Source: Micrococcales bacterium 31B (GTDB taxonomy: Bacteria > Actinomycetota > Actinomycetes > Actinomycetales > Dermabacteraceae). From it: a stretch of DNA of 64,000 bases. The stretch covers positions 160,747-224,746 of the forward strand of contig JAFFTF010000001.1 in the NCBI GenBank assembly GCA_022803075.1, given 5' to 3'. The notes beneath the pieces are model-generated. The model ran no database searches and was not told the DNA's origin. It worked only from the letters and a program-made list of their open reading frames with translations. This document shows, in pieces, positions 4,235 to 22,544 of this stretch; position 1 is the stretch's first letter; every line of letters starts with the position of its first letter. Both the position numbers and the translations under genes were made by a program.

Positions 4235-5224
4235 ATGCAGTCAGGACGCAGGCCGTCGATGCACGATGTGGCGCGAGAGGCGGGGGTCTCGTACCAGACC
4301 GTCTCGCGCGTGCTCAACGAGCCCGACCTCGTGAGGGCCACGACGCGCGAGCGCGTGCAGGCGGCCATCGACGAGCTGGGCTTTCATCGCAACCTCAACG
4401 CTCGCGCGCTAAAGACCGCCAAGAGCTCGCTAATCGGATTGATTCACACGGGGTCGAGCGCGTTCGGCCCTGCGTCGATCGTGAATGCGATAGGGCGCGC
4501 GGCCCAGACGGCGCACCTCTCGACGCTCACGACCATCCTCGACGCGGAGCATCCGGAGCGCGCCGCGACAAGCCTTAGATTTCTCGCGGAACACATGGTG
4601 CAGGGCATCGCAGTGGTGTCGGCCCAGGAGTGGATCGCGGAGGCTATCGCCCAACACATCGGCGGGCTGCCCGTGCTGTTCGTGACCGCCGATACCTCGG
4701 TGCGGGTGCCGCAACGACATGCGACGGTGGACCAGGCGCGGGGGATGGAACTGCTGGTTGAGCACCTCCGGGAGCGCGGCAGGCGGCGCATCGCGCACAT
4801 CGCGGGGCCGGGGGATTGGTTCGACGCGCGCGTGCGCGAGGCGGAGTGGCGGCGGCTCGTAAGCCCCGAGGAACGCGAGATGCTCGTGCGGGGTTCGTGG
4901 TCGGCGGACGACGGGTTCGCCGCGATGCAGCAGGTGCTCGCGCACTTCGAGGTGGACGCCGTGGTGGCCGCGAATGACGCGATGGCGCTGGGCGCCGTGC
5001 GGGCGCTGCAGGCGGCCGGCCTGTCGGTGCCCGGGGATGTCGCGGTGGTCGGGTTCGATGACGTGCCGGGTGCTGCCTACTTTGCTCCGGGGCTGACGAC
5101 GATCCGCCAGCCGTTTGAGGAACTCGGCGCGGCGGTGGTGGCGGCCCTGGCGGGGGAGGCGGGCGATTCGGGGCACGCGATTGCTCCGATTGCGCCGCAC
5201 CTGGTGGTACGGGCGTCCTCGTAG
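4235..5224 (+). CDS. LacI-family repressor, probable regulator of araBDA
   Basis: A 329-residue LacI-type transcription factor. The N-terminal helix-turn-helix is SMHDVAREAGVSYQTVSRVL, followed by the hinge helix (NLNARALKTAKS) and a periplasmic-binding-protein-like sensor domain (AVVAANDAMALGAVRALQAA, VAVVGFDDVPGA). I chose the ATG at 4235 because GAAAGGGA lies directly upstream and the helix-turn-helix begins within ten residues, as is usual; the open frame extends further up without family resemblance. It sits immediately before araBDA, and two LacI-type palindromes lie between its stop and araB, so it most likely represses araBDA and releases it on arabinose or a derivative. The role is inferred from context. 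Confidence 0.88.
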   Translation: MQSGRRPSMHDVAREAGVSYQTVSRVLNEPDLVRATTRERVQAAIDELGFHRNLNARALKTAKSSLIGLIHTGSSAFGPASIVNAIGRAAQTAHLSTLTTILDAEHPERAATSLRFLAEHMVQGIAVVSAQEWIAEAIAQHIGGLPVLFVTADTSVRVPQRHATVDQARGMELLVEHLRERGRRRIAHIAGPGDWFDARVREAEWRRLVSPEEREMLVRGSWSADDGFAAMQQVLAHFEVDAVVAANDAMALGAVRALQAAGLSVPGDVAVVGFDDVPGAAYFAPGLTTIRQPFEELGAAVVAALAGEAGDSGHAIAPIAPHLVVRASS

Positions 5225-5264: not shown

Positions 5265-5294
5265 TTGACAGTGAATTATGTGAACGTTTACATT
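5265..5294 (+). promoter_or_regulatory. Predicted promoter of araBDA
   Basis: A consensus -35 box TTGACA (5265-5270) and a -10-like TACATT (5289-5294) are separated by 18 bases. The -10 box lies inside the first operator palindrome, so a bound repressor would block RNA polymerase. Confidence 0.65.
5279..5292. promoter_or_regulatory. Operator 1 of araBDA (LacI-type palindrome)
   Basis: TGTGAACGTTTACA is an inverted repeat with an AACGTT core and a single mismatched pair between its arms. It overlaps the spacer and -10 region of the predicted promoter. Confidence 0.7.
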
Positions 5295-5310
5295 TGAGCC
5301 CAAGCAAGAA

Positions 5311-5324
5311 TGTGAACGTTGACA
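5311..5324. promoter_or_regulatory. Operator 2 of araBDA (LacI-type palindrome)
   Basis: TGTGAACGTTGACA repeats operator 1 with one change. The centres of the two sites are 32 bases apart, about three helical turns, so two dimers could bind on the same DNA face. It lies in the predicted leader between the promoter and the araB ribosome site. Confidence 0.7.
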
Positions 5325-5350
5325 TTGAAGTCAGCTTTAGAGGAGGCATC

Positions 5351-7078
5351 GTGGCCGAACCAGCCGAAAGCTACGTCATCGGCGTCGATTACGGCACCCT
5401 GTCGGGCCGAGCCGTCGTCGTGCGCGTCGCCGATGGGGCAGAGCTCGCGAGCGCCGTACACCCCTACGCGCATGCGGTGATGTCCCAGACGCTCACGGCC
5501 GGCGACCACCAGGCGCTACCCCCCGAATGGGCCCTGCAAAACCCGGGCGACTATGTGGATGTGCTACGCCACGCCATACCCGAGGCGTTGCGCGCGGCGG
5601 GCATCGACCCCGCCCACGTCATCGGCGTCGGCACCGACTTCACCGCCTGCACCATGGTCCCCACCACCGCCGACGGCACGCCCCTGTGCGACCTGCCCGA
5701 GTACGCGGCTCGCCCCCACGCCTACGTCAAGCTGTGGCGCCACCACGCCGCTCAGGGCCAGGCAGACCGCATCAACGAGCTCGCCCACTCCCGCCGCGAA
5801 CCGTGGGTGGCCCGCTATGGCGGCCTCATCTCCAGCGAATGGGAGTTCGCCAAGGGCCTCCAGTTGCTCGAAGAAGACCCCGAACTCTACGGCGTCATGC
5901 GCCACTGGGTCGAAGCCGCCGACTGGATCGTCTGGCAACTCACGGGCACCTACGTGCGCAACGCGTGCACCGCGGGCTACAAGGGCATACTGCAAGACGG
6001 CGCCTACCCCTCCCCCGAGTTCTGCGCGGCCCTCAACCCCGAGTTCGAAACCTTCGTCGCCGACAAGCTGGCACACCCCATCGGCCAGCTCGCCGCCCCC
6101 GCCGGAACCCTGAGTGCCGAGGCCGCCGCCTGGACCGGCCTGCCCGAGGGCATCACCGTCGCGGTCGGCAACGTCGACGCCCACGTCACCGTGCCCGCCG
6201 CGAACGCGGTGCAACCCGGCTCGCTCGTCGCGATCATGGGCACCTCCACGTGCCACGTCATGAACGGCGAGATCCTCGCCGAGGTACCCGGCATGTGCGG
6301 GGTCGTCGACGGCGGCATCACGAGCGGCCTCTGGGGCTACGAGGCCGGCCAGAGCGGAGTGGGCGACATCTTCGGCTGGTTCGTCGACACGAGCGTGCCC
6401 CCCGAGTACGCCGTCGCCGCCGCCGAGCGAGGGCTGGGCCTGCACGAATACCTGACCACCCTCGCGTCCGAGCAGGCCATCGGCGAGCACGGGCTGATCG
6501 CCCTCGACTGGCATTCGGGCAACCGCTCGGTGCTCGTCGACCACGACCTCTCGGGCCTGATCATCGGCCAGACGCTCGCCACGAAGCCCGAAGACCAATA
6601 CCGCGCCCTGCTCGAAGCCACGGCGTTCGGCACGCGCCGCATCATCGAGGAGTTCCGCGCCTCGGGAGTGCCCGTGCGCGAATTCGTCGTGGCCGGCGGC
6701 CTGCTCAAAAACGCCCTGCTCATGCAGATTTACGCCGACGTCACGGGCCTGCCACTCTCGACCATCACCTCGGAGCAGGGCCCCGCGCTGGGCTCGGCGA
6801 TCCATGCGGCAGTCGCCGCGGGAGCCTACCCCGACATCGTGGCCGCGAGCGCGGCCATGGGCGGACGCACGGTGGGCGCGTACCAGCCGATTCCCGAGAA
6901 CGTGGCGCGCTACGACGCGCTTTACGCCGAGTACCTGACCCTGCACGATTACTTTGGGCGCGGCGGCAACGAGGTCATGCATCGGCTGAAGGCCCTGCGC
7001 GCCGAGGCGCGCGCGAGCCGCACGGGCGCCGCCCCCGCCCGGCCCGCCCCCGCCACCCAGGAGGCCATCCATGCCTAA
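5351..7078 (+). CDS. araB: Ribulokinase
   Basis: Phosphorylates L-ribulose to L-ribulose-5-phosphate, the second step of L-arabinose catabolism. The 575-residue FGGY-family kinase shows the N-terminal nucleotide/sugar fold (IGVDYGTLSGRAVVVRV), the ribulokinase signature GVGTDFTACTMVP, and the C-terminal FGGY domain (VAGGLLKNALLMQIYADV and TSEQGPALGSAIHAA). The start is the GTG at 5351, preceded by AGGAGG with four bases between. The open frame reaches back to 5261 but would run through the operators. Its stop overlaps the araD start by eight bases. The operon is behind the two-operator promoter. Length and motifs are normal. Confidence 0.95.
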   Translation: MAEPAESYVIGVDYGTLSGRAVVVRVADGAELASAVHPYAHAVMSQTLTAGDHQALPPEWALQNPGDYVDVLRHAIPEALRAAGIDPAHVIGVGTDFTACTMVPTTADGTPLCDLPEYAARPHAYVKLWRHHAAQGQADRINELAHSRREPWVARYGGLISSEWEFAKGLQLLEEDPELYGVMRHWVEAADWIVWQLTGTYVRNACTAGYKGILQDGAYPSPEFCAALNPEFETFVADKLAHPIGQLAAPAGTLSAEAAAWTGLPEGITVAVGNVDAHVTVPAANAVQPGSLVAIMGTSTCHVMNGEILAEVPGMCGVVDGGITSGLWGYEAGQSGVGDIFGWFVDTSVPPEYAVAAAERGLGLHEYLTTLASEQAIGEHGLIALDWHSGNRSVLVDHDLSGLIIGQTLATKPEDQYRALLEATAFGTRRIIEEFRASGVPVREFVVAGGLLKNALLMQIYADVTGLPLSTITSEQGPALGSAIHAAVAAGAYPDIVAASAAMGGRTVGAYQPIPENVARYDALYAEYLTLHDYFGRGGNEVMHRLKALRAEARASRTGAAPARPAPATQEAIHA

Positions 7079-7868
7079 CAACCTCACGGCCGGCCCCGCC
7101 GCCGAAACTGCCACCGAAACCGCTACCGAGGTACCCAACGCGGCGGCCAAGGCCAGCCCGGCCCCGCGGCGCGTCCTCGCCGAACTGCCCGACGCCACCC
7201 AGGCGGCCGTGCGGGCCACGCGCGAGAACGTGGCGGCCCTGCACGCCGAGCTGCCGCGCTGGGGCCTCGTAGTGTGGACGGCGGGAAACGTCTCGGAGCG
7301 CGTGCCCGGCACCGACCTGTTCGTCATTAAACCGTCGGGGGTCTCCTACGATGACCTCGCGGCCGACGCGATGGTCGTGTGCGACCTCGACGGCGCGAAG
7401 ATCGACGACGGCACCCCCGAGAGTCTCACCCCGAGCTCCGACACGGCCGCGCACGCCTACGTGTACCGCCATCTCGAGCACGTCGGCGGCGTCGTGCACA
7501 CGCACTCCACCTACGCGACCGCGTGGGCCGCGCGCGGCGAGGCGATCCCGTGCGTGCTCACCATGATGGGCGACGAGTTCGGCGGTGAGATTCCCGTCGG
7601 CCCCTTCGCGTTGATCGGCGACGACTCGATCGGCCAGGGCATCGTCGAGACCCTGCGGGGCTCACGCTCACCGGCCGTGCTCATGCAAAACCACGGCCCG
7701 TTCACGATCGGCCGCGATGCGCGCGCCGCCGTCAAGGCCGCCGTCATGTGCGAGGAGGTCGCCCGCACCGTGCACATCTCGCGCCAACTGGGCGAGCCCC
7801 TCGCGATACCCGCAGCGCAGATCGACAGCCTGTACGAGCGCTACACAAACGTTTACGGCCAGCACTAA
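7071..7868 (+). CDS. araD: L-ribulose-5-phosphate 4-epimerase
   Basis: Converts L-ribulose-5-phosphate to D-xylulose-5-phosphate, feeding arabinose carbon into the pentose phosphate pathway. A class II aldolase-fold metal enzyme of 265 residues. Motifs include WTAGNVSER, KPSGVSYDDL and VVHTHSTYATAW. Expected zinc ligands are present: Asp124, His143, His145 and His208 (in QNHGPF), spaced as in E. coli Asp76, His95, His97 and His171. The first 35 or so residues are an Ala/Thr-rich extension not found in standard AraD; an internal start is possible but has no better ribosome site than GGAGG at 7059. Start overlaps the araB stop, suggesting coupled translation. Confidence 0.95.
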   Translation: MPNNLTAGPAAETATETATEVPNAAAKASPAPRRVLAELPDATQAAVRATRENVAALHAELPRWGLVVWTAGNVSERVPGTDLFVIKPSGVSYDDLAADAMVVCDLDGAKIDDGTPESLTPSSDTAAHAYVYRHLEHVGGVVHTHSTYATAWAARGEAIPCVLTMMGDEFGGEIPVGPFALIGDDSIGQGIVETLRGSRSPAVLMQNHGPFTIGRDARAAVKAAVMCEEVARTVHISRQLGEPLAIPAAQIDSLYERYTNVYGQH

Positions 7869-7895
7869 CCCGCCCCGCAACCACAAGGACCTCAT

Positions 7896-9404
7896 ATGCA
7901 GAACCCCTACGCCAGCAGTTACGTCTGGTTTCTCACCGGCAGCCAAGACCTCTACGGCCCCGAGGTGCTCGACCAGGTGGCACAGAACTCGGCCGAGATC
8001 GTGGCCGCGCTCAATGCGAGCGGCGACCTCGCCGCCGAGGTCGTCGCCCAGCCCACGCTGAAAGACCGCGACGCCATTCGCCGCACCATGCTCGCCGCGA
8101 ACGCCGACGAGAACTGCCTCGGCGTGATCGTCTGGATGCACACGTTCTCGCCCGCAAAGATGTGGATTCAGGGCCTCAACGCGCTCGACAAGCCCATGCT
8201 GCACCTGCACACGCAGGCGAACGTGGGGATCCCGTGGGAGTCCATCGACATGGACTTCATGAACCTCAACCAGGCCGCGCACGGCGACCGCGAGTTCGCC
8301 TACATGGCCACGCGGCTCGGCACCAAGCGCGCCGTCGTGGTCGGCCACGTGAGCGACGCCCGCGTGCGCCGCGAGATCGACGACTGGGTGCGCGTCGCCG
8401 CGGGCCGCGCCGCCCTGCGCTCGATGCGCCTCGCGCGCTTCGGCGACAACATGCGCAACGTGGCCGTCACCGAGGGCGACAAGACGGAGGCCGAGGCGGT
8501 ATTCGGGGTCAGCGTCAACACGTGGGGCGTCAACGAACTGGTCGAGGTTGTCGACGCGGTCTCGGACGCCGCGGTGGGCGCGCTGGTTGCCGAGTACGAG
8601 ACCCTCTACGACGTGGTGCCCGAGCTGCGCCGCGGGGGAGATCGCCACGAATCGCTGCGCTACGGGGCGCGCCTCGAACTGGGCCTGCGCGCCTTCTTGG
8701 AAGGCGGCGGATTCACGGCCTTCACCACCAACTTTGAAGACCTCGGTGGGCTGCGCCAGTTGCCGGGCCTCGCGGTGCAGCGACTTATGGCGGACGGCTA
8801 CGGGTTCGGCGCCGAGGGCGACTGGAAAACCGCCGTGCTGGTGCGCGCCGCCAAGGTGATGGGCTTCGGCCGCCCCGGCGGCGCGAGCCTCATGGAGGAC
8901 TACACCTACCATCTCGACCCCGGCAACGAACTGATTCTCGGTGCCCACATGCTCGAGGTCTGCCCCACCCTGTCGAGCGCCAAGGCCCGCCTCGAGATCC
9001 ACCCCCTCGGTATCGGCGACCGCGAAGACCCCGTGCGTCTCGTGTTCACGGCCGACCCCGGCCCCGCCGTGGTCGTGTCGCTCGCCGACATGGGCGACCG
9101 CTTCCGCCTCACGGCCAACACCGTCACCAACGTCGACCTGCCCCACGACATGCCGCGGCTGCCAGTGGGTCGGGCCCTCTGGGCGTCCGAACCCGACTTC
9201 GCGACGGCCACGACCTGCTGGCTGCTCGCGGGCGGCGCGCACCACACGTGCATGTCGACCAACGTCTCGATCGACATGTGGCGGGCGCTTGCGGACGCCA
9301 CGGGCGTCGAGTTGGCCGAGATTGGCCCCGATACCAGCGTGGCCGGGTTCCGCCGCGAGCTGCGGGCGAGCGCCGCGTATCACCGTTTCGTGACGAATTT
9401 TTAA
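7896..9404 (+). CDS. araA: L-arabinose isomerase
   Basis: Converts L-arabinose to L-ribulose, the first catabolic step. The protein has 502 residues, against 500 for E. coli AraA. The catalytic and metal residues line up one position later: Glu307 ([11 protein letters not shown]), Glu334 ([10 protein letters not shown]), His351 ([10 protein letters not shown]) and His450 ([11 protein letters not shown]). The N-terminus [12 protein letters not shown] and the [11 protein letters not shown] motif are also typical. AAGGA lies 8-9 bases before the ATG. The gap from araD is 27 bases, so it belongs to the same operon. A hairpin follows and may separate it from the transporter genes. Confidence 0.97.
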
Positions 9405-9429
9405 GGTAAGCCGTCGCGATCACCAGACT

Positions 9430-9465
9430 CCGCGCGGCCCGATCGAGAGGGAGCGGGCCGCGCGG
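9430..9465 (+). terminator. GC-rich hairpin between araA and the sugar transporter
   Basis: A perfect 12-base stem (CCGCGCGGCCCG with CGGGCCGCGCGG) around a 12-base loop lies 26 bases after the araA stop. There is no T-run after it, so it may be a partial terminator or an mRNA stabiliser rather than a full stop. Confidence 0.5.
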
Positions 9466-9509
9466 GCCTTAAGGATTGACCGGTGCGAAGACGCACCAGA
9501 GGAGGTTCA

Positions 9510-10844
9510 ATGATGAATCCGCCAGATATTCTCGGCGCTGCCGTGACGCGCCGCTCGCTGCTGCGCGGCGCGCTGCTCGGTGCCGGCGCCCTCGCCGGGG
9601 CGGGTGCGCTCTCGGGCTGCGGTCGATTTGGCACCGCGAATACCCAGGATGTGCAACTGTGGCACCTGTTTACGGGCGGCGACGGCGGCGCGTTCATGGA
9701 GATCACCGCCGCCGTCGAGGCCCAAAACCCCGGCCTCGCCATCGAGACCACCGTCCTCTCGTGGGGCGGCCCGTATTACACGAAGCTTGCCATGGCCTCC
9801 GTGGGCGGACGCGGCCCCGACCTCGCCGTGATGCACGCGTCGCGGCTCGCGGGCTATGCCCCCGGCGGGCTCATCGAGCCGTGGGATTTCGACCGCCTCG
9901 CCGAGCACGGCGTCGCCGAGGCCGACATCTCGCCCCTGCTGAAGGACTACTGCACGGTGGGCGGCAAGCAGTTCGCCATTCCCATGGATTTTCACCCCAC
10001 GGTGCTGTTCTACAACACCGATGTGTGCGCCGAGGCGGGGGTGCTCGATGCCGATGGCAAGCTCACGGGTGTCGACTCGGCCGAGGGGTTTCGCGACGTG
10101 CTCGCCAAGGTGCAGAAGGTCACTGGCCAGCAGGGCCTCGCGTACGGGTACAACAATGACGGCGCGCAGGTCTCGCGCATTTTCTGGACGATGTACAAGC
10201 AACTGGGTGGCGAGATCGACCTTGTGATCGGTCGCGACACCGATCTGAATCTCGACATCGCCGAGCAAGCCATCGCGTACGTGCAGGGGCTGCTCGACAA
10301 CACGCTCGCGCTGCAAACTAACGATGGTGGAGCCGCGATTGCGCAGTTCAGCACGGGCCGCGCCGGGCTGCTCTGGAGCGGAGTGTGGGAGGTCAACACG
10401 TTCAAGAAGGCGGGCCTCAACTTCGACGTCATGCCGATGCCGAAGTTCTTCGACAAGCCGGGCACCTTCGGCGACTGTCACTCGCTGATTTTGCCCACGC
10501 ACCTGAGCCGCGACGACGCCCGCGTCGACCGCGCCTACCAGGTCACTGCGGGGTTCCTCAAGAACTCGCTGACCTGGGCGGACGGCGGTCACATTCCCGC
10601 CTATACGCCCGTCACGAAGACCCCCGAGTACGCGGCTCTGCTGCCGCAGGCCCACTACGCGAGCGCCGTGGACGCGCCCGTGTTCGAACCCACCGCGTGG
10701 TTTTCGGGCTCCGCCTCGAACCTCCAGGCGCGCATGAGCGGCGCCGTCGAACCCGCCTGGCTGCACGGCGGCGACCCCGCTGTCGCAGCGAAGGCCGTAC
10801 AAACCGCCCTCAACACGTTGCTGCACGCGACCCAACCGGCCTAA
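9510..10844 (+). CDS. Sugar ABC transporter substrate-binding lipoprotein (CUT1)
   Basis: Extracellular sugar-binding lipoprotein that feeds the two permeases encoded behind it. It begins with a twin-arginine motif (TRRSLLRG), a hydrophobic stretch and a lipobox LSGC (Cys at about residue 37), so it is probably Tat-exported and lipid-anchored. The mature part shows family 1 binding-protein features such as VQLWHLFTGGDGGAFMEITA and FAIPMDFHPTVLFYN. The start is ATG 9510 or ATG 9513, both behind GGAGG (9501-9505). Placement in the arabinose locus suggests arabinose or arabino-oligosaccharides as ligand, an inference. No ATPase gene is present here, so a shared MsiK-type ATPase is probably used. 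Confidence 0.92.
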   Translation: MMNPPDILGAAVTRRSLLRGALLGAGALAGAGALSGCGRFGTANTQDVQLWHLFTGGDGGAFMEITAAVEAQNPGLAIETTVLSWGGPYYTKLAMASVGGRGPDLAVMHASRLAGYAPGGLIEPWDFDRLAEHGVAEADISPLLKDYCTVGGKQFAIPMDFHPTVLFYNTDVCAEAGVLDADGKLTGVDSAEGFRDVLAKVQKVTGQQGLAYGYNNDGAQVSRIFWTMYKQLGGEIDLVIGRDTDLNLDIAEQAIAYVQGLLDNTLALQTNDGGAAIAQFSTGRAGLLWSGVWEVNTFKKAGLNFDVMPMPKFFDKPGTFGDCHSLILPTHLSRDDARVDRAYQVTAGFLKNSLTWADGGHIPAYTPVTKTPEYAALLPQAHYASAVDAPVFEPTAWFSGSASNLQARMSGAVEPAWLHGGDPAVAAKAVQTALNTLLHATQPA

Positions 10845-10852
10845 GGAGCATC

Positions 10853-11800
10853 ATGGCAACCCTCACCCCACGCAAGGTGTCGCGCCAGGCCGTGGACCGC
10901 GCGTCCGGCCCCCACCTGCGCAAAATACCCGACCGCGGCTGGATGTTCTATCTGCCGTTCGCCGTGGTCGCCCTGCTGTTTCTCGTGATTCCCACCCTGT
11001 GGGGGTTCGGGCTGTCGTTCACCGAGCGCTCCCTCATGGGGCGCGGCGGGTTCGTGGGCCTCGCGAACTACGCGGAGGCGTTCGGCGACGCCGAAATGTG
11101 GCGCACGCTCGGCAACACGCTGCTGTTCACGGGCCTGTCGACCGTGCCGCTGGTCGTGCTGCCACTCATCATGGCGGTGCTCGTCTACCTGGGCCTGCCC
11201 GGGCAGTGGCTGTACCGGTTCGCATTTTTCGCGCCGTTCCTGCTGCCCGTCACCGTGGTCGTGCAGGTGTGGGGCTGGCTGTTTCAACCCGACTTCGGCT
11301 TCATCAACTTCTGGCTCGACCGGCTCGGCCTCGAAAAGATCGGCTGGCTCACCGATTCGAGCATGGCGATGCTGTCAATCGTCATCATCACAACCTGGTG
11401 GACGGTCGGCTTCAACTTCTTGCTGTACCTCTCGGCGCTGCAGTCGATTCCCGACCAGCTGCTCGAGGCCGGTTCGATCGACGGGGCGGGCACGTGGCGC
11501 ACCCTGTGGTCCCTGATTCTGCCGCAGTTGCGCGGAACGACCGTGCTGGTCACGATTCTGCAGGTGCTCGCGTCGATGAAGGTGTTCGACCAGATGTTCA
11601 TCGTCTACAACGGCGGCGCAGGCCCCTCGGGCAGCACCCGGCCGATTCTGCAGTACATATACGACTCGGGGTTCGTGGACTACCGCGTGGGTTACGCCGC
11701 CGCCATGTCGTACATCTTCTTTGCCATCATCATCGTCGCGACCCTGGTGATCCAGGGCGTGCAGCGCTACGCAACGCGAGGAGCCCGCACTCATGGCTAA
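10853..11800 (+). CDS. Sugar ABC transporter permease 1 (MalF-like)
   Basis: A 315-residue inner-membrane permease of the CUT1 sugar importer family with about six helices. The first spans YLPFAVVALLFLVIPTLWGF. The EAA loop reads EAGSIDGAGTWRTLWSLILP, as in MalF/UgpA-type permeases. The ATG at 10853 follows TAAGGAG by a few bases and is eight bases after the binding-protein stop; a longer open frame upstream is only an overlap with that gene. It ends overlapping the next permease by eight bases. With its partner it forms the channel for the arabinose-locus binding protein. Confidence 0.93.
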   Translation: MATLTPRKVSRQAVDRASGPHLRKIPDRGWMFYLPFAVVALLFLVIPTLWGFGLSFTERSLMGRGGFVGLANYAEAFGDAEMWRTLGNTLLFTGLSTVPLVVLPLIMAVLVYLGLPGQWLYRFAFFAPFLLPVTVVVQVWGWLFQPDFGFINFWLDRLGLEKIGWLTDSSMAMLSIVIITTWWTVGFNFLLYLSALQSIPDQLLEAGSIDGAGTWRTLWSLILPQLRGTTVLVTILQVLASMKVFDQMFIVYNGGAGPSGSTRPILQYIYDSGFVDYRVGYAAAMSYIFFAIIIVATLVIQGVQRYATRGARTHG

Positions 11801-12770
11801 TTCCCTGCTCACCCCCGCATCGGTTGATTCGCTAGATTCTGGGGACGCCCCGCGCCCTCCCTCCGGCAACGCGTTCAGTCGGGCTGCGGCCCGGCGACGC
11901 GTCGCGGCCGCAGAGGTCACGCGCACGCGGCGCCTGCTGCTCGGCAACTCGAAGGGGCTGCGCATCTCGGCGTTCATCGTGCTGGCCCTGTTCGTGATCG
12001 CGTGGCTGCTGCCGTTCCTGTGGGCGATCAACACCTCGCTCAAGACGGAACTGCAGGCCCAGGCGGTGCCCCTGACGTGGTTTCCCGAGGGCGGACTCAC
12101 GCTGACCCAATACGAGACGGTGCTGGGCCACGGCTCCATCGTGGTGTGGCTCGGCAACACCGTGGTCATCTCGCTCGTGGTCACGGTGCTGACCACGCTG
12201 ATCTGCGCCATGGCGGCGTACTCGTTTTCGTTCACGCGGTTTCGCGGTCAAAAATTTCTGTTCGCCGCCACCATCGCATTGATCGCGGTGCCGGGCCAGA
12301 TTCTCGTGGTGCCCCTGTTTCAAGAAATGCTCGCGATTCAGGCGGTGGACACGTTCGCGGGCATCATCTTGCCGCAGCTGATCGCGCCCGCCATGGTCTT
12401 CATCTTCAAGCGGTTCTTCGACCAGGTGCCGCACGAACTGATCGACTCGGCTCGTATCGACGGAGCCCACCACGGGCGCATCTTCTGGAGCATCGTGCTC
12501 CCGATCTCGCGGCCCATCACGGTTGCCGTGGCGATCTTCGTGTTCATCGGCGCGTGGAACAACTTCATGTGGCCGTTTATCGTCACGAACGTGCCCGCTC
12601 TGATGACGCTGCCCGTGGGTCTCGCGACCGTGAAAGACGCCTATGGCGTGGTCTACGCGCAGGGCATGGCCTCGGCCATGATCGCCGCCGTGCCGCTCAT
12701 GATCGTGTTCGTGTTCTTTCAACGCCACATCGTGAAGGCCGTGGCGACGACCGGCATGGGTGGCATGTAG
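11793..12770 (+). CDS. Sugar ABC transporter permease 2 (MalG-like)
   Basis: Partner permease, 325 residues, with the EAA loop DSARIDGAHHGRIFWSIVLP and six predicted helices. The N-terminal 50 residues are hydrophilic and Arg-rich (SRAAARRRVAAAEVTRTRR), longer than in typical MalG-type proteins, and lie on the cytoplasmic side. Translation start overlaps the previous stop. The second LacI-type regulator begins 22 bases after this gene, so regulator and transporter may be co-transcribed. Confidence 0.93.
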   Translation: MANSLLTPASVDSLDSGDAPRPPSGNAFSRAAARRRVAAAEVTRTRRLLLGNSKGLRISAFIVLALFVIAWLLPFLWAINTSLKTELQAQAVPLTWFPEGGLTLTQYETVLGHGSIVVWLGNTVVISLVVTVLTTLICAMAAYSFSFTRFRGQKFLFAATIALIAVPGQILVVPLFQEMLAIQAVDTFAGIILPQLIAPAMVFIFKRFFDQVPHELIDSARIDGAHHGRIFWSIVLPISRPITVAVAIFVFIGAWNNFMWPFIVTNVPALMTLPVGLATVKDAYGVVYAQGMASAMIAAVPLMIVFVFFQRHIVKAVATTGMGGM

Positions 12771-12792
12771 TCCACCGGCTACGATGTGACCC

Positions 12793-13803
12793 ATGGCCAC
12801 CCCCCACGACTCGCGCGTCGCGACGATGAAAGACGTCGCCGCGCACGCGGGCGTCTCGCTGAAGACCGTCTCGAACGTCGTGAACGACTACCTACACGTC
12901 TCCGATTCGGTGCGCGAACGGGTCAAACGCTCGATTGCCGAGTTGAACTATCGGCCCCGCGCGGCCGCCCAAGAACTGCGCAAGGGGTCGAGCGGGGTCA
13001 TCACCCTCGCGATCCCCGACCTGCGCTTCTCGTACTTCGCCGAGCTCGCCCAGCTGTTCATCGAGCGGGCCGACGCGCGCGGCCTTACGGTGCTGCTGCG
13101 CACGTTCGTGCAGCGGGGCGAGACCGAGCGCGAGGTGCTGTCGGGGTATCCGCTGCGCATCGGCGACGGCGTCATCTTTAACCCGCTGGATCTGCCCCTG
13201 GCCGACCTGCGTACCCGCCCGGCGTCCGGCCTGCCCATGGTGTTTATCGGCGAACACGTCGATGCCGGTCAGGTGCCCGACGGCACCGACGCCGTGCTGA
13301 TCGACAACGCCGCCGCCACCCGCGACATCACGGCGCTGCTGCTCGCGCGGGGGCGCCGCGTCGCGTTCGTCGGGGCCATACCGGCGCAGGAACACGGGTC
13401 GGCGACGCAGCGGCTCGCGGGTTTTCTGGACGCCACGGGTGGCGGGGTGGTCATCGACGTGGCCGGTTGGCAGCGTGCCGACGGGGCGCTCGCGGCCGAG
13501 CGCGTGCTGCGCGAGCACCCTGAGGTGAACGGTCTCGTGTGCGCGAACGACCAGTTGGCCCTCGGGGCGCTGGACGCGCTCGCGGCACGCGGGCTGCGCG
13601 TGCCGCGAGACATGGCGGTGGTGGGCTACGACAATCTGGAGGCGGCGGAGCACGCGCACCCCCCGCTCACGACAATCGCGCCCGATCGGGTGAACCTCGT
13701 TGATCACGCGCTGGGTTTTCTCGTGGAGCGCATGAGCGGCTACGACGGGCCGGGTCGCGTGCACGAGGTGCCGTACGCCGTGGTCGAGCGGTCGAGCCAC
13801 TAG
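12793..13803 (+). CDS. LacI-family regulator, second in the arabinose locus
   Basis: A 336-residue LacI-type repressor with helix-turn-helix ([20 protein letters not shown]), hinge ([20 protein letters not shown]) and sugar-sensor domain ([32 protein letters not shown]). It closes the arabinose transporter operon. It shares only family-level similarity with the regulator at 4235, so the two probably see different sites or ligands. A natural split would be one regulator on araBDA and the other on the transporter or the distant arabinofuranosidase, whose operators have a different core. That assignment is a guess. Confidence 0.88.
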
Positions 13804-15717: not shown

Positions 15718-16838
15718 GGCGTCGCCTTCGCTACAACCCGTCGCGCCGACTGCACCGCGGTCACGCCGCACGCGACGACCGCGAAGGCGACGGCGCCCCA
15801 CCAGGCGGGCACGAGCTCTAGCGGCAGCGTGGGCGCGACGATCTGCAGCGAGTAGGCCAGGTAGCCGAGCCCGCCTCCCGCCACGAGGGCAAACATCACG
15901 CAGGTCAGGGCGGCCCCCGCGAGGGTGCGGCGCAACGTGGCGGCGCCGACCCCGAGGTCGTGGAACAGTGCCGCGCGAGCCGAGAACTCCTGCGCAAGGG
16001 CGAGGGTTTCGCGCACCGCAATCCCCAGGAGAGCGAGCAGGGCGATCGCGCTCACGGCGAAGATGAGCCCGAGATTCGCTCTAGATTGCTGTTCGGCGGT
16101 GGTCAGAAGGTCGGCCACCGGGGTGGCCGCGAAGGGTTGAGCGTAGCCGCTGTGGCTGAGCCCCTCCGCCCACGGTGACGTGTTGAGCACGTCGGTCACC
16201 CGCCAGGGCTCGGCGTCGGTCAGCACCTGGGTCGGCGCGAGGGCCGAGGCCTCTACCTCTCCGGCCAGCGCGGCGGCGGGCACCTGCGCGAGGCCCTTGA
16301 ACCCGGTCTCGCGCACGCCGTAGACACCGCGAATGGTGAGCGACACGAACTTCTCGGGGCCTACGCGCACCTCGACCGTGTCTCCCGGGCGCGCATGCAG
16401 CGCGGCCGCGATGTCGCTGCTCACGTCCATCCAGCGCGGGCCTACGGGCGCCGCCGCGGCTGCGAGCGTGGCGGGCGGCATGAAGGTCATGGACTGATCG
16501 GCGTCGCTGTTCGACATGACGAGCATTTCGGTCATGTCGATTGAACCCGTCGGGCTGCGGAGTTCGGTCAGCATGATCGACATGAGTGCCACACGGGCGC
16601 CCCCGAGGCTTTGGCTCAACGCTGCGGCGTCGCTCGCGGAGGCCACAACGGGTGCCTCGGTGCGGGCGGCAGTGTGACGGTACGCCGCAGTGTCGAGCGC
16701 GTACTGTGCGGGAAAGATCATTCCGAGGGCGAGCGTGAGGCCGGCGGTGAGGGCTACCACCACCGCCAGCCTCACGAGGTCACCGCGCATGCTGCGGACC
16801 ACTTCGAGGGTCGGACGCCATCGTGTCTGGGTTGTCAT
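15714..16838 (-). CDS. FtsX/MacB-type permease, first half-size subunit of locus 1
   Basis: A 374-residue membrane protein with one N-terminal helix (LVRLAVVVALTAGLTLALGM), an extracytoplasmic domain of about 210 residues, and three C-terminal helices starting at LGLIFAVSAIALLALLGIAV. The domain between helix 1 and helix 2 has a MacB-like stretch (AALHARPGDTVEVRVG). The chosen ATG at 16838 puts the basic cytoplasmic segment directly before helix 1; a longer frame upstream lacks a ribosome site. It follows the secreted-protein gene by 37 bases and overlaps the next permease gene. It forms the other half of the presumed heterodimer. Confidence 0.75.
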   Translation of the reverse strand: MTTQTRWRPTLEVVRSMRGDLVRLAVVVALTAGLTLALGMIFPAQYALDTAAYRHTAARTEAPVVASASDAAALSQSLGGARVALMSIMLTELRSPTGSIDMTEMLVMSNSDADQSMTFMPPATLAAAAAPVGPRWMDVSSDIAAALHARPGDTVEVRVGPEKFVSLTIRGVYGVRETGFKGLAQVPAAALAGEVEASALAPTQVLTDAEPWRVTDVLNTSPWAEGLSHSGYAQPFAATPVADLLTTAEQQSRANLGLIFAVSAIALLALLGIAVRETLALAQEFSARAALFHDLGVGAATLRRTLAGAALTCVMFALVAGGGLGYLAYSLQIVAPTLPLELVPAWWGAVAFAVVACGVTAVQSARRVVAKATP

Positions 16839-16875
16839 CTTCTGCTGATTTCGTTCGTGGCCGCAGCGGCAGTCG

Positions 16876-17400
16876 TTAGGAAATGGAGATTCGGCGGGAG
16901 GCGTTGGTGTCGGCTTGGTGGCCGCTACCGGTGCCCGCGTGGAAGAACTTTGATCCAACTCTTCCGGCGACTGCGCTGCCCTTGACCGTCACGTGTTTGC
17001 CACCCCAGAACGACTCACTGCCGCTAACCATCCACTGGGTTGAGTGCTGCCAGGAGTCGTAGACCTGTTTGTACGTGGTGCTGCTCAAATGGGCATCGTA
17101 CGAGTCGACTCGAGGCTGCTGGAACGTCGTGGGGAACGAATTCACGTAGTAGCCGGTCACGGGCAGCGGCAGGCCGAGAACGCGTGCGGTGTACTTAATG
17201 TCAGCCGTGCCTGAAACGCGGGTGCCGCGAGGAGCGCTGTCACGGCTCGTGATGGCTTTGGTGACAATGCCCCAGTTGGTATTACCGCCGATGCTGATTG
17301 AGGTGCCCGCGTGAGCCGGGACGGCCGAGGCCAACGAGAGGGCGACGGCACCCAGAACTGCGTATGAGCCAAGCCGGATTCGGGTTGCGAAAGTAGACAT
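16876..17400 (-). CDS. Small secreted protein of locus 1, function unknown
   Basis: A 174-residue protein with a clear Sec signal peptide (basic start, hydrophobic core AVLGAVALSLASAVPA, cleavage after AHA near residue 31). The mature part is about 143 residues, has no Cys, and is rich in Ser, Thr, Gly, Tyr and Trp (for example QVYDSWQHSTQWMVSGSESF), suggesting a beta-rich exported protein. AAGGGAG stands a few bases before the ATG. It is the first gene of the operon that continues with two FtsX-type permeases and an ATPase. That order recalls lactococcin-972-type bacteriocin loci, but I cannot see a lactococcin 972 match by eye. Confidence 0.7.
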   Translation of the reverse strand: MSTFATRIRLGSYAVLGAVALSLASAVPAHAGTSISIGGNTNWGIVTKAITSRDSAPRGTRVSGTADIKYTARVLGLPLPVTGYYVNSFPTTFQQPRVDSYDAHLSSTTYKQVYDSWQHSTQWMVSGSESFWGGKHVTVKGSAVAGRVGSKFFHAGTGSGHQADTNASRRISIS

Positions 17401-17978: not shown

Positions 17979-19514
17979 TTACTTCGCGGCGAGCTGCGCC
18001 ACGTTCCACGACATTGCGGGCAGGTCTAGCGTCAGCACGCCGTCCTCCAGCGTGTAGTTCTGCGCGTCGACGGCGGCCACGTTATCGGGGTCGTCGGCAG
18101 TGTTGATCGCGAGCGGGTCTTCGTGCGTCAGTGTCTTCGACAGTGTGACCGCGAGGTCGGCATCGAACGAGCGCAGGTCGACGCGCACGGTCTGGGCGGA
18201 GGACTGCGAGCGATTCACAGCGAAGACAGCAAGTGTGGCCGTCTCGGCGTCCCAGGTGGCGACCGCGTCCACCTCATTCACGATGCCGTACTTGGCGGTC
18301 TCGTAGGTGTCGCTCGCGACGCGCACATCGAGCACCTCGCCGCGCGCGAGCGCCGAGGTGAGCGCGAACGGGTCGAACGTGGTCTGCTTCCAGGCGCGGC
18401 CCCCGGGCTCGGTCATGATCGGTGCGATCACGTTGACGAGCTGGGCGAGCGAGGCCGAGGCCACGCGGTCGCTGTTGCGCAGCAGCGAGATCAGCAGAGA
18501 CCCGAAGACCACGGCGTCGAGCGCCGAGTAGCGGTCCTCGAGCAGCACGGGCGCCACGGGCCAGTCGTCGCCCGTGGGCGGCTTGGAGGGCTCGCGGTTG
18601 AGGTACCACACGTTCCACTCGTCGTAGCTGACCATGATCTTCTTGTCGCTCTTCTTGGTGGCGGCAATGTAGTCGGCGGTCGCGGTGACGGAGGCGACGA
18701 AGCGGTCCATGTCGACCGCGGAGGCGAGGAACGAGCCCGCGTCGTCGTCCTGGTTGTTGTAGTACGAGTGCGCCGAGATCATGTCGACGACGTCGAAGGT
18801 GTGTTCGAGCACCTTCGCCTCCCACGCACCGAAGGTGGGCATGCCGCGACCCGAGGAGCCGCACACCACGAGTTCAAGGCCGGGTTCTTCCATGCGCAGG
18901 GCGCGTGCCGTGGCTGCCGCCAGCTTGCCGTAGTCGTCGGCGCTCTTCGCGCCGATCTGCCACGGGCCGTCCATCTCGTTACCGAGGCACCACCACATGA
19001 TCTTGTAGGGGTCGGGCGAACCGTTGGCGGCGCGGTAGTCCGACCAGTGCGTGCCCTGGGGGGCGTTGCTGTATTCGAGCACGTCGAGCGCCTCCTGCAC
19101 GCCGCGCGTGCCCAGGTTGACGGCCATCATGGGTTCGGCGTCGAGGTGGCGCATCCAGGTCATGAACTCGTCGAGGCCGAACGTGTTCGGCTCGGTCGAG
19201 TGCCACGCGAGGTCGTGGCGCACGGGACGCTGGTCGACGGGGCCCACGCCGTCCTCCCACTTGTAGCCCGAGACGAAGTTGCCGCCCGGGTAGCGCACCG
19301 AGCTGATGCCGAGTTCTTTGACGAGCTCCAGCACGTCGGCGCGAAAGCCGTCGGCGTCGGCGGTGGGGTGCTCGGGTTCGAAGATGCCGGTGTAGACGCA
19401 GCGCCCCAGGTGCTCGACGAACGCGCCAAAGGTGCGGCGACGCACGGGCGCGACGGTGAAGCGGGGGTCGAGGGTCAGGCTGGCCTGGTGGGCGGGCTGG
19501 GCTGAGGTCGTCAT
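17979..19514 (-). CDS. abfA: Alpha-L-arabinofuranosidase, GH51
   Basis: Releases terminal L-arabinofuranose from arabino-oligosaccharides. The 511-residue protein has the GH51 clan-A barrel: RYPGGNF (about residue 74), acid/base Glu180 in CLGNEMDGPWQ, and nucleophile Glu299 in VSYDEWNVWY, followed by a beta-sandwich C-terminus. No signal peptide, so it acts in the cytoplasm on imported oligomers, consistent with the arabinose transporter at 9510-12770. It is a single gene on the minus strand between the two secreted-protein loci. Its promoter carries two palindromic sites, so it is regulated, most likely by arabinose. The gene symbol is by family. Confidence 0.95.
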   Translation of the reverse strand: MTTSAQPAHQASLTLDPRFTVAPVRRRTFGAFVEHLGRCVYTGIFEPEHPTADADGFRADVLELVKELGISSVRYPGGNFVSGYKWEDGVGPVDQRPVRHDLAWHSTEPNTFGLDEFMTWMRHLDAEPMMAVNLGTRGVQEALDVLEYSNAPQGTHWSDYRAANGSPDPYKIMWWCLGNEMDGPWQIGAKSADDYGKLAAATARALRMEEPGLELVVCGSSGRGMPTFGAWEAKVLEHTFDVVDMISAHSYYNNQDDDAGSFLASAVDMDRFVASVTATADYIAATKKSDKKIMVSYDEWNVWYLNREPSKPPTGDDWPVAPVLLEDRYSALDAVVFGSLLISLLRNSDRVASASLAQLVNVIAPIMTEPGGRAWKQTTFDPFALTSALARGEVLDVRVASDTYETAKYGIVNEVDAVATWDAETATLAVFAVNRSQSSAQTVRVDLRSFDADLAVTLSKTLTHEDPLAINTADDPDNVAAVDAQNYTLEDGVLTLDLPAMSWNVAQLAAK

Positions 19515-19531: not shown

Positions 19532-19547
19532 TTTACAACGATGTAAA
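19532..19547. promoter_or_regulatory. Operator A upstream of abfA
   Basis: TTTACAACGATGTAAA is a near-perfect palindrome (TTTACA and TGTAAA arms) between the predicted promoter and the abfA start. Confidence 0.65.
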
Positions 19548-19562
19548 TTGCGGTCGAGCACC

Positions 19563-19591
19563 AATTTATATCGTTGTACATTTGGTGTCAA
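19563..19591 (-). promoter_or_regulatory. Predicted promoter of abfA
   Basis: On the minus strand TTGACA (19586-19591) is followed after 17 bases by TAAATT (19563-19568). The -10 region lies inside operator B, the same layout as at araBDA. Confidence 0.6.
19565..19580. promoter_or_regulatory. Operator B upstream of abfA
   Basis: Read on the minus strand this is TGTACAACGATATAAA, sharing the ACAACGAT core with operator A. The centres are 33 bases apart, three helical turns. Confidence 0.65.
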
Positions 19592-19647: not shown

Positions 19648-21834
19648 TCAGGCGTCGGTGGCGAGCAGGTCGCGATTGAATCGGGGCGAGCCCATGGCGT
19701 AGCCACAGGCCGCGACGAAGATGAGGCTCGCTGCGAGCGCGATGCTGGGCGCGAGCGCCACGCTCGCGAGGTTCATGTAGAGGCGCCCGAACACGGCCTG
19801 GCAGATCATGGCGGAGAGGCTGCCGATGGTCAGCGAGATGAGGCCGGGTATCAGCAGCGGCGCCGTGAGTTGACACAGGGAGGCTAGGCGCAGAGTGCGT
19901 GGTCTCATGCCTAGCGCCTGCTGCGACGCGATGCTGCGCGCCATCTCCCAGCGGATCTCGATGAGCACGAAGAGCAGGCACATGAAGAGAATGCCGAAGC
20001 CGAGAATCGTGCCCCCGTTGACGGCGCCCGCCCCGGCGTTGAGGTTGTAGTAGCCCTCCTCGTTCTTCACACCGTAATTCAAGGGCCAATCTTTAACTAT
20101 CTTGTGGATCGCGTCCATGGTTTTGGCGAGCCGGTTGTCTTCGGTATACACAGTGACGGCAAAGCTCATGTCGGCTGCCGAGAGAATCCATTGACCCTGA
20201 TCCAACGGTAATTTCAGGTCGGTTATGGCGTGGGAGGTGCCCAGGGGGGCAGGTAAGGTCACGGTGCGCGTTGACCCGTCGAGTTGCTTCACCTGCAGGG
20301 AGGGCGGCAGGTTTGCACCCTGCACTCCCCTTTGAGGCTCCTCGCGGCAACCCTCGACAAGGTACGTGTCGGCGTGGCCCGGCGCAGGGCATGCGAAGGT
20401 CGACACCGTATGGAATTCGGGCGTCATGTAGATCGCATCAACATGCGCGGTGCTGAGCCGCATCAATTCTTGCCGCTGTGCGAGCGAGAGGTCGCCGGTG
20501 ATATTGAAGGTTTGCCACCCTGCATCGTTAGCGGTGTCGCGTGCGAAGGCTGAGAGCATGCCTCCGGCGAAGCTGGAGACCATAAGAGCGCAGGCGACTG
20601 CAGCAGTTAACGTGGTGACGCGTGATGCATGATGATGCGCAAGCCGCATGCCCATTTTCACGGGGACCATGCCCTGCAGTCGCTCAGCAACGCGACGGAG
20701 GCCGCTCAGGAGGTAGGGGTTAAGCAGCAGCAGCCCGACGAGGCCCGCGAGCGCGGAAGACATGGAGTAGATAATGAAGTTGTCGCCCGCCTGATATTCG
20801 GGTACCTGGCTCATGAGCGAAGGCAGCGAAACCGCCGTGAAACCCGCTGCGGCCAGCAGCAGGCCGCCCCCGGCCAGTACGCGGAACGCGTCCACCCAGC
20901 GATTCCGACGTGAGGGTTGGGATGACTTGCCTAGCGCCCGACGCATGTGGCGGGCGCTGCCAGCGGCGATCAGGCCCAGGGTGACGGCGGCCAACGCGAC
21001 ATAAACCCCTGTGGGCAGCAAGGCCTGCTGCGGAAACCACGCGACACCGAGCCAGGCGTTCTCGCCGAATCGTGATTGAACGGCCGAAAAAATGACGTAC
21101 GCGACCGCGAGGGAGACGATACCCACCGCGGTCATTTCGGCGGCGAAGATTCGGGCGCAGCGATTCGCGGCGAGCCCAATCTTCACCAATCGCTGGTAGC
21201 GGCCGCGGCGACTGCGGGCAGAAAAGCCCAAGCAGATGGAGGCGAACAGGAGGGCGGGCGCCAGAGTAAAGAGGGCGAGGCTCGCGTACGTTTGAGACGT
21301 GTTTGTGGGAAGTGAGGCAGTGCCCGAAGGGTCGCCGAAGCCAACAAGACGTTGTGCATCGAAATGTTCAGCGGTACGCGTGTACGAGTAGAGTTCGCGT
21401 GGTGACACGAGGCCCTCGGGGCTAATCGGGGTCGCGTCCACGATGCCGAGTTCGAATCCGACCGTTTTGTCGCGCTGAAGCACTTTGAGCAGTGCGGGCG
21501 AGACAATGCTGTGCCCAGGCTCGGGCCAGGCGCTGAGGCCCGGCGGCGGCTTCACCCCCGAGAGGTCGCCGCCAACTGTCACGCTATGCCACGGTACTGT
21601 TTCTGCCTGGCGTACACTACCCCACGCGAAGGCCGCTCCCGTGTCTGTGGTGACAATGGGGGTGCGGGCTATGTCGGTGGCCTCCGCGCGGGCCAGGGCA
21701 GTGGGTACGGCAAGGCACAGGAGCACGCTGGCGAGGGCTATCGCTAGCCCCGCGACCATGAGGGCGATGCGCAAAATGTCGCGGGGGCCGGCGCCCGCGA
21801 TGAGGCGCAGGCCGAGACGGATGTCGCGAATCAC
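19648..21834 (-). CDS. Full-length MacB/FtsX-type permease of secreted-protein locus 2
   Basis: A 728-residue membrane protein containing two FtsX-like units in one chain. It has an N-terminal helix (IALMVAGLAIALASVLL), an extracytoplasmic domain, a central block of about six helices, a second extracytoplasmic domain (about residues 430-610), and three final helices (GTILGFGILFMCLLFVLIEI onward). Size and layout resemble the bacteriocin-associated integral membrane proteins found with lactococcin-972-type peptides. It is the last gene of the locus and its ATG overlaps the stop of the ATPase gene by four bases. Role inferred: with the ATPase, it exports or senses something, or gives immunity to the secreted protein. 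Confidence 0.75.
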   Translation of the reverse strand: MIRDIRLGLRLIAGAGPRDILRIALMVAGLAIALASVLLCLAVPTALARAEATDIARTPIVTTDTGAAFAWGSVRQAETVPWHSVTVGGDLSGVKPPPGLSAWPEPGHSIVSPALLKVLQRDKTVGFELGIVDATPISPEGLVSPRELYSYTRTAEHFDAQRLVGFGDPSGTASLPTNTSQTYASLALFTLAPALLFASICLGFSARSRRGRYQRLVKIGLAANRCARIFAAEMTAVGIVSLAVAYVIFSAVQSRFGENAWLGVAWFPQQALLPTGVYVALAAVTLGLIAAGSARHMRRALGKSSQPSRRNRWVDAFRVLAGGGLLLAAAGFTAVSLPSLMSQVPEYQAGDNFIIYSMSSALAGLVGLLLLNPYLLSGLRRVAERLQGMVPVKMGMRLAHHHASRVTTLTAAVACALMVSSFAGGMLSAFARDTANDAGWQTFNITGDLSLAQRQELMRLSTAHVDAIYMTPEFHTVSTFACPAPGHADTYLVEGCREEPQRGVQGANLPPSLQVKQLDGSTRTVTLPAPLGTSHAITDLKLPLDQGQWILSAADMSFAVTVYTEDNRLAKTMDAIHKIVKDWPLNYGVKNEEGYYNLNAGAGAVNGGTILGFGILFMCLLFVLIEIRWEMARSIASQQALGMRPRTLRLASLCQLTAPLLIPGLISLTIGSLSAMICQAVFGRLYMNLASVALAPSIALAASLIFVAACGYAMGSPRFNRDLLATDA

Positions 21835-22508
21835 GGCGCGCTGCTCTCGATGCGCCCGTCTACGAGGCGAATGATGCGTTGCGCGCGCTCGGCCACGATT
21901 GGGTCATGTGTCACCACCACGAGTGCCGCATCTACGTGCTGGGTCGCATCGATGAGCGTGTCGAGCACCGTGTCGGAGTTTTTGCTGTCAAGAGCGCCCG
22001 TGGGCTCGTCGGCGAAAACCACGGAGGGCTTATGTGCTACCGCACGAGCCACTGCCGCGCGTTGGCGCTGACCGCCGGAGACTTGGTGCGGCTTGCGGTC
22101 GGCGCACTCGGCGAGGCCCAGGCGATCGATGAGCTCGTTCACTCGCGCTCGCAGGGCACCGCGCCGCACTCCCGTTAACTCGAGGGGCAGCGCAATGTTT
22201 TGGCGCAGGGTGAATTCGGGCACCAACTCTGCGTTCTGGAAGACGAAGCCCACATGATGCAGGCGCCATGAGGCTATTTGGTCGGTCGTGAGCTTCGTGA
22301 AGTCAACGAGTTCACCATCGACCACGACGGTGAACTCGTTGACGGTGGGCACGAGTAGCCCCGACAGGCAGTGCATCAGGGTGGTCTTGCCGGAGCCCGA
22401 CGCGCCCACGATGGCAACAAACTCACCGGCCCCAATGGAGACGTCGAGGCCGTCGAGCACAATCACGCTGTTCGTGTAACTCAGCGAGAGCGCGGAAGTT
22501 CTAATCAC
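21831..22508 (-). CDS. ABC transporter ATPase of secreted-protein locus 2
   Basis: A 225-residue MacB/LolD-type ATPase: Walker A GASGSGKTT, Q-loop FVFQNAELVPEF, signature VSGGQRQRAAVARA, Walker [13 protein letters not shown], and VVVTHDP with the switch histidine. Start is a GTG at 22508, 36 bases after the secreted-protein stop; I see no strong ribosome site ahead of it, so translation may be coupled or weak. It pairs with the 728-residue permease that follows. It is only a family-level relative of the ATPase at 13841, so the two loci do not look like a recent duplication. Confidence 0.85.
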   Translation of the reverse strand: MIRTSALSLSYTNSVIVLDGLDVSIGAGEFVAIVGASGSGKTTLMHCLSGLLVPTVNEFTVVVDGELVDFTKLTTDQIASWRLHHVGFVFQNAELVPEFTLRQNIALPLELTGVRRGALRARVNELIDRLGLAECADRKPHQVSGGQRQRAAVARAVAHKPSVVFADEPTGALDSKNSDTVLDTLIDATQHVDAALVVVTHDPIVAERAQRIIRLVDGRIESSAP

Positions 22509-22544
22509 AAGTGTTGCTCTGCCTTGTCGAAACGGACGAAATTC

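What the first reader, a model, noticed from the sequence alone, without database searches (positions are those of the whole stretch)
19532..19591. abfA has an operator pair with the same geometry but a different core
Upstream of the arabinofuranosidase gene two ACAACGAT-core palindromes sit 33 bases apart in opposite orientation, again with one inside the -10 region after TTGACA. The arrangement copies the araBDA promoter, but the core differs from AACGTT. It suggests a second regulator, perhaps the LacI-type protein at 12793, so that oligomer cleavage and arabinose catabolism are controlled by parallel switches.
Basis: partly seen in the sequence, partly recalled or inferred. Interest (0 to 1): 0.5.

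Follow-up and report, generated by a model that had tools for sequence, protein, structure and literature searches.

The report
Arabinofuranosidase gene's own LacI-type switch
The gene for an arabinose-releasing enzyme carries its own pair of repressor-binding sites, different from those of the neighbouring arabinose-burning genes and most likely read by a second, nearby repressor: a sound but fairly ordinary piece of bacterial sugar control.

Summary
Two CG-centred operators (19532-19547, 19565-19580) lie 33 bp apart upstream of abfA (GH51); the distal one covers the spacer and -10 of a TTGACA-17-TAAATT promoter. In the 3.93 Mb genome they are the only CG-centred matches to TTTACAWCGWTGTAAA within two mismatches. 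The araBDA pair (32 bp apart) differs at the specificity positions.

A second regulator is well supported, with the LacI at 12793 (LacI2) the best candidate. In 22 Brachybacterium loci (same family) its relatives sit divergently beside abfA; 22 of 22 have CAACGTTG-core operators before abfA. An exact pattern hits 22 sites in 78 genomes, 14 of them in that gap, with 0 in the reversed control. The published LacI code links R20 to G at NT-6: LacI1 and araBDA fit, while LacI2 (N20) and abfA both lack it. All 25 abfA-bearing family relatives have a LacI2 relative; the 6 with araB have neither gene.

No binding was tested, and a phylogeny-corrected test had no power. Bifidobacteria are already known to use separate LacI switches (AraQ/AbfR). 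Local twists: doubled operators, and lacI2 placed behind araBDA and a transporter, so the switches may be nested rather than parallel.

The parts
17979..19514 (-). abfA, GH51-type alpha-L-arabinofuranosidase, 511 aa
   Evidence: PF06964 E 1.7e-45 and PF22848 E 4.7e-5; closest named relative Brachybacterium paraconglomeratum, 65%
19532..19547 (.). proximal operator TTTACAACGATGTAAA, centre 33 bp from the distal one, in the inferred 5' leader
19565..19580 (.). distal operator TTTATATCGTTGTACA, over spacer and -10
19586..19591 (-). -35 hexamer TTGACA
19563..19568 (-). -10 hexamer TAAATT, 17-nt spacer
12793..13803 (+). lacI2, LacI-family regulator with recognition helix [12 protein letters not shown]; proposed abfA repressor
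   Evidence: PF00356 and PF13377; relatives beside abfA
4235..5224 (+). lacI1, LacI-family regulator with recognition helix VSYQTVSRVLNE; proposed araBDA repressor (AraQ-like)
   Evidence: PF00356 and PF13377; same helix beside the same araBDA operator in G002 and G006
5278..5293 (.). araBDA operator 1 ATGTGAACGTTTACAT (contrast class)
5310..5325 (.). araBDA operator 2 ATGTGAACGTTGACAT (contrast class), 32 bp from operator 1
5351..9404 (+). araB (5351-7078), araD (7071-7868), araA (7896-9404)
9483..12770 (+). sugar ABC transporter: binding protein 9483-10844, permeases 10853-11800 and 11793-12770; lacI2 follows after 22 nt
   Evidence: SBP_bac_8 and SBP_bac_1 for the first gene; permeases by similarity and position only

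Best explanation
The two sites are operators of a local LacI-family repressor, most likely LacI2 (12793-13803). A dimer on the distal site blocks the -35/-10 region; a second dimer about three helical turns downstream, in the inferred leader, adds repression, probably cooperatively. An arabinose-containing ligand (arabino-oligosaccharide or arabinose) would release it. araBDA is controlled separately by LacI1, an AraQ-like protein with lac-type recognition residues. Shown from sequence: sites, promoter overlap, genome-wide rarity, conservation of this operator class beside abfA and its LacI neighbour in relatives, and different recognition residues. Inferred: that LacI2 binds, that it represses, the ligand, cooperativity, and the transcription start.
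For: (1) Pair beyond chance and nearly unique in the genome. (2) In 22 fetched Brachybacterium loci a LacI2 relative is divergent from abfA; the best site in the 200 nt before abfA has the letters T.CAACGTTG.A at the same places in 22 of 22. (3) Exact TNTRCAACGTTGYANA: 22 sites in 78 genomes, 14 in the lacI2-abfA gap, reversed control 0. (4) Brachybacterium transporters related to the window's also carry the class: 11 of 14 binding-protein genes have a site with at most 4 mismatches in the 350 nt before them, several reading ATTACAACGATGTAAA, against 118 of 2000 random stretches. (5) Family co-occurrence: abfA with LacI2 relative 25, abfA alone 0, LacI2 alone 4, neither 17; araB with LacI2 0 of 6. 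(6) Recognition: R at residue 20 goes with G at NT-6 (PMC2978694). LacI1 has R20 and the araBDA half ATGTGAAC has that G; LacI2 has N20 and the abfA half TTTACAAC has T. (7) LacI2 groups with the family's abfA-associated LacI proteins (SH-aLRT 99). (8) G002 and G006: araB operator ATGTGAACGTTTACAT, divergent LacI with VSYQTVSRVLNEP, no abfA, no LacI2 relative.
Against: No binding or expression data. LacI2 has no operator of this class at its own gene, whereas 72% of LacI regulators studied are reported autoregulated (PMC4052901). A second LacI in the genome (C2:45579, VSWKTVSNVVHE) has the same K16/N20 residues and a weak ATTACAACGTTAGACC near its gene. The window's own sites do not match the Brachybacterium pattern exactly (0 exact hits in the own genome; they read CATCG or GATAT on one side). 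Of 70 loci with a KTVSNV-type LacI, 23 have no site within 3 mismatches before abfA, and 2 of 47 without such a LacI do. On the abfA tree only about 1 of 6 independent pairs is informative. LacI2's exact place in its clade is unresolved.
Confidence: 0.82

Rival explanations
1. LacI1 (the araBDA regulator) also binds the abfA pair, so both promoters are one regulon.
For: Same geometry, same CG centre, same pathway. In bifidobacteria AraQ controls some GH51 genes and in some genomes overlaps with AbfR (PMC5928203).
Against: abfA sites are 7 and 8 mismatches of 14 from the araBDA consensus. They lack the G at NT-6 that goes with R20. In the family, araB and abfA do not occur together in any of 46 relatives at the thresholds used, yet the abfA operator class persists in abfA-bearing genomes.
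Confidence: 0.06
2. Another LacI paralogue, above all the one at C2:45579 with helix VSWKTVSNVVHE, is the abfA regulator or shares it with LacI2.
For: It is the only other one of 25 LacI-family proteins with K16 and N20; a weak half-matching site lies near its gene.
Against: It lies on another contig, is 36% identical to LacI2 and falls outside the family's abfA-associated clade; its neighbourhood holds no site with fewer than 5 mismatches.
Confidence: 0.08
3. The sites are not operators but chance or another element, such as a transcript hairpin or a nucleoid-protein site.
For: The distal site is a poor palindrome (5 of 8); sequence alone cannot exclude it.
Against: Rarity, promoter overlap and conservation of the class beside abfA argue against it.
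Confidence: 0.03

Closest known systems
AbfR/AraQ division in Bifidobacterium (Arzamasov et al. 2018, PMC5928203; outline, passages and section 9 seen)
   Same: One LacI-family protein for araBDA, another local LacI-family protein for GH51 arabinofuranosidase genes and, in some genomes, an ABC transporter.
   Different: AbfR sequence and logo were not compared here, so orthology is open. Here the operator is doubled, lacI2 lies about 4 kb from abfA behind araBDA and a transporter, and the transporter has no abfA-type site.
Brachybacterium (Dermabacteraceae) lacI2-abfA divergent unit, read here from genome sequence
   Same: Related abfA (64-68% identity) and LacI2 (about 47-50%), same operator class in the shared gap.
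   Different: There lacI2 is adjacent and divergent, mostly one site is seen, sites read CAACGTTG, and araB was not found in the abfA-bearing genomes.
E. coli lac operator/LacI and the LacI recognition code (Camas et al. 2010, PMC2978694; sections 6, 7, 9 and passages seen)
   Same: CG-centred palindromes; residues 15, 16 and 20 set the half-site. LacI1 has YQ and R20 as LacI does; that lac half-sites read TGTGAGC is recalled.
   Different: The paper limits its code to TVSR proteins; LacI2 is TVSN, so only the residue-20/NT-6 link was used.
AraR of Corynebacterium glutamicum ATCC 31831 (PMC5956887; passages seen)
   Same: Repressor of araBDA and the arabinose transporter gene.
   Different: Its operator and family were not compared here; that it is LacI-type is recalled.

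Membership tests
LacI-family regulator (LacI2, 12793-13803) | N-terminal LacI helix-turn-helix (PF00356) | tested here: met
   56.6 bits, cut-off 27
LacI-family regulator (LacI2, 12793-13803) | C-terminal periplasmic-binding-like ligand domain | tested here: met
   PF13377 92.8 bits, cut-off 26.5
LacI-family regulator (LacI2, 12793-13803) | CG-centred even palindrome as operator | tested here: inconclusive
   abfA sites are CG-centred, but binding by LacI2 is inferred
LacI-family regulator (LacI2, 12793-13803) | autoregulation (72% of the family in PMC4052901, not obligatory) | tested here: not met
   no abfA-class site within 3 mismatches near its gene
AbfR (bifidobacterial) | local LacI-family control of intracellular GH51 arabinofuranosidase | tested here: inconclusive
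   matches by context and operator conservation; binding untested
AbfR (bifidobacterial) | orthology to AbfR and same motif | not tested
   no AbfR sequence or logo was at hand; the logo is a figure
AraQ (LacI1, 4235-5224) | LacI-family gene linked to araBDA with operators before araB | tested here: met
   same arrangement in G002 and G006
AraQ (LacI1, 4235-5224) | orthology to bifidobacterial AraQ | not tested
   no AraQ sequence compared
GH51 arabinofuranosidase (abfA) | Alpha-L-AF_C and ASD1 domains | tested here: met
   (ASD1 only just over its cut-off, 23.5 against 22.2)

The most novel reading that the evidence does not exclude
The two switches are wired in series: lacI2, in relatives divergent from abfA, has become the last gene of an araBDA-transporter-lacI2 run. 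LacI1 would then set how much abfA repressor is made, and the transporter, under the abfA-type operator in Brachybacterium, has passed to the arabinose switch. Arabinose would raise LacI2 and so restrain further oligosaccharide cleavage, a feedback brake.
Probability: 0.3. Interest if true: 0.42.

Novelty: new member of a known kind. Interest (0 to 1): 0.27.

Why it matters
It extends the two-repressor division between sugar release and sugar burning, known from bifidobacteria, to Dermabacteraceae, gives an operator class for LacI proteins with K16/N20, and offers a testable case of a repressor gene moving into another regulator's transcription unit.

Tried and rejected

Operator-like hits 200-370 nt upstream of abfA in Brachybacterium (TTGACCACGTTGGAGA and similar): rejected as operators. 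I read them as the DNA that encodes the KTVSNV helix of the divergent lacI2; the scan was then limited to 200 nt.

Common descent of the two promoters: alignment score reached by 3 of 500 shuffles; not taken as homology because both are palindrome pairs after TTGACA.

Association of KTVSNV-type LacI with the site across 117 abfA loci (three duplicate loci, L178, L188 and L189, dropped): 47, 23, 2, 45 (Fisher 8e-13); without Streptomyces 47, 23, 2, 8 (p 0.011). With relatedness taken into account the test has no power: 6 independent pairs, on average 1.1 the same way, 0 opposite, 4.8 not differing. I therefore lean on the conserved gap and not on this table. The family co-occurrence table is not corrected for relatedness either; its LacI2 threshold (1e-50) also admits paralogues, and 4 of its 6 araB matches are only 43-47% identical.

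The two no-LacI loci with a site are L035, whose contig ends soon after abfA, and L047, for which I have no explanation.

Terminator or promoter between araA and the transporter: none found by the scan; a strong hairpin without a T-run is there.

Literature: five searches for the motif letters, Brachybacterium, Dermabacteraceae or the actinobacterial abfA operator gave only the bifidobacterial paper and one unrelated paper.

Full report
What is there. abfA (17979-19514, minus strand) encodes a GH51 arabinofuranosidase. Reading its strand, the promoter region is TTGACA, then CCAAATGTACAACGATA (17 nt), then TAAATT; the distal operator TGTACAACGATATAAA overlies spacer and -10, and 33 bp further (centre to centre) lies TTTACATCGTTGTAAA, followed by GGGAG and the ATG. 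If transcription starts about 7 nt after the -10 (inference), the proximal operator lies at about +10 to +25. The araBDA promoter has TTGACA at 5265-5270, operators at 5278-5293 and 5310-5325 with centres 32 bp apart.

More than chance. The window holds 2 matches to TTTACAWCGWTGTAAA within 3 mismatches, 0.08 expected. A motif-free search for like pairs finds only the araBDA and abfA pairs; no shuffle of 100 gave two. In the whole genome there are 10 places within 3 mismatches, control 5; the abfA sites are the only ones with a CG centre at 2 or fewer. The araBDA consensus ATGTNAACGTTNACAT has 64 places within 3 mismatches (control 13), but only the araBDA pair at 0 and none at 1 among the listed places, which are ordered by mismatch. 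Each class therefore looks local to its own promoter.

Two operator classes. Numbering from the CG centre, the araBDA half-site is ATGTnAAC: G at NT-6, T at NT-5. The abfA half-site is TTTACAAC or TTTACATC: T at NT-6, A at NT-5, C at NT-4 (one half of the distal site has T at NT-4). The abfA sites are 7 and 8 mismatches from the araBDA consensus and the araBDA sites 8 and 7 from the abfA one.

Two regulators. The genome has 25 LacI-family helices, all read. LacI1 (4235-5224) reads VSYQTVSRVLNE, LacI2 (12793-13803) [12 protein letters not shown]. Only one other of the 25, at C2:45579, has K16 and N20 (VSWKTVSNVVHE). In 370 proteins with assigned sites, residue 20 correlates with NT-6, arginine going with guanine, and residues 15 and 16 with NT-5 and NT-4 (PMC2978694 section 6). 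LacI1 with R20 and a G at NT-6 before araB fits; LacI2 with N20 and no G before abfA fits. That YQ goes with TG is recalled from the lac operator; the paper's code is limited to TVSR proteins, so it makes no prediction for LK.

Relatives. The nearest held relatives are Brachybacterium: contigs of L002, L011 and L024 equal in length those of G033, G036 and G009, so group g4 is that genus and the family is Dermabacteraceae (label). In 22 fetched g4 loci, of 25 family relatives with abfA, a LacI2 relative lies divergently beside abfA. The best site in the 200 nt before abfA has 2-4 mismatches to the abfA consensus (20 of 22 at 3 or fewer), and T at -6, CAACGTTG in the centre and A at +6 in all 22. 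Picking the best site inflates conservation at single positions, but an exact genome-wide search gives an independent measure: TNTRCAACGTTGYANA occurs 22 times in 78 genomes, reversed control 0, and 14 lie between lacI2 and abfA (one of these, G034, beside a partial abfA match), with one more 180 nt from a LacI2 relative on a short contig. The window's own genome has no exact match to that pattern.

The same class also precedes transporter genes in these loci: 11 of 14 binding-protein genes have a site with at most 4 mismatches in the preceding 350 nt, against 118 of 2000 random stretches; several read ATTACAACGATGTAAA, one letter from the window's proximal site. In the window the related transporter follows araA after 78 nt and has no such site (best 7 mismatches).

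Farther out, Arthrobacter-group loci carry TTCTATAACGTTGTAGAA-like sites before abfA and a VSLKTVSNV LacI nearby, and Phytoactinopolyspora TTCTACATCGATGTAGAA with [11 protein letters not shown]. Other KTVSNV-type loci depart from this: Cellulomonas has AGTTCAACGATGGACT, and a second abfA copy in Brachybacterium has GGTACATCGTTGAACT.

Dissociation of the two modules. Among 46 family relatives, 25 have abfA and all 25 a LacI2 relative; 4 have a LacI2 relative without abfA (three of these are assemblies of over 500 contigs) and 17 neither; the 6 with an araB match have no abfA and no LacI2 relative. In the two with a close araB (G002, G006, 73%), the operator ATGTGAACGTTTACAT stands before araB and a divergent LacI reads VSYQTVSRVLNEP, as LacI1 does; of their 5 and 6 LacI matches I read 4 and 4 helices, none of the KTVSNV type. 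These tables are not corrected for relatedness; a corrected test of LacI type against site had no power.

Wiring. araB, araD, araA, three transporter genes and lacI2 follow each other on the + strand with gaps of at most 78 nt (permease start). No promoter-like site was found at 9300-9600, but a hairpin of -33 kcal/mol lies at 9420-9482, and TACGAT at 12780-12785, seven bases before the lacI2 ATG, could be a leaderless promoter (read by eye). So LacI2 supply may or may not depend on the arabinose switch.

Known or new. Separate LacI switches for araBDA (AraQ) and GH51 genes (AbfR) are described for bifidobacteria, with araQ relatives noted in other actinobacterial families (PMC5928203). This is a new member of that kind. 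I found no paper on it in Brachybacterium or Dermabacteraceae in the searches made.

Noticed in passing
13841-17400 and 19648-22976: abfA stands between two minus-strand runs of ABC ATPase, large permease-like proteins and a small secreted-looking protein (16876-17400; 22545-22976); the small proteins and the permeases tested have no Pfam match. They separate abfA from lacI2, which are adjacent in Brachybacterium.
   Followed up: partly
9420-9482: Strong GC-rich hairpin (-33 kcal/mol) without a T-run between araA and the transporter; may tune read-through.
   Followed up: partly
L249 4185-4225 (G000:C27:162185-162225): Another doubled LacI-type operator, AAGTGAACGATCACAT and ATGTGATCGTTCACTT, 25 bp apart, about 4 kb from a LacI gene with helix VSHQTVSRYLRG.
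   Followed up: no
lacI2 relatives in L162-L184: The codons of the recognition helix (KTVSNV) themselves resemble the operator on the other strand (TTGACCACGTTGGAGA), a trap for site scans.
   Followed up: yes
L162-L184: Many Brachybacterium loci carry a second, distant GH51-like gene (27-34% to abfA) next to abfA.
   Followed up: no
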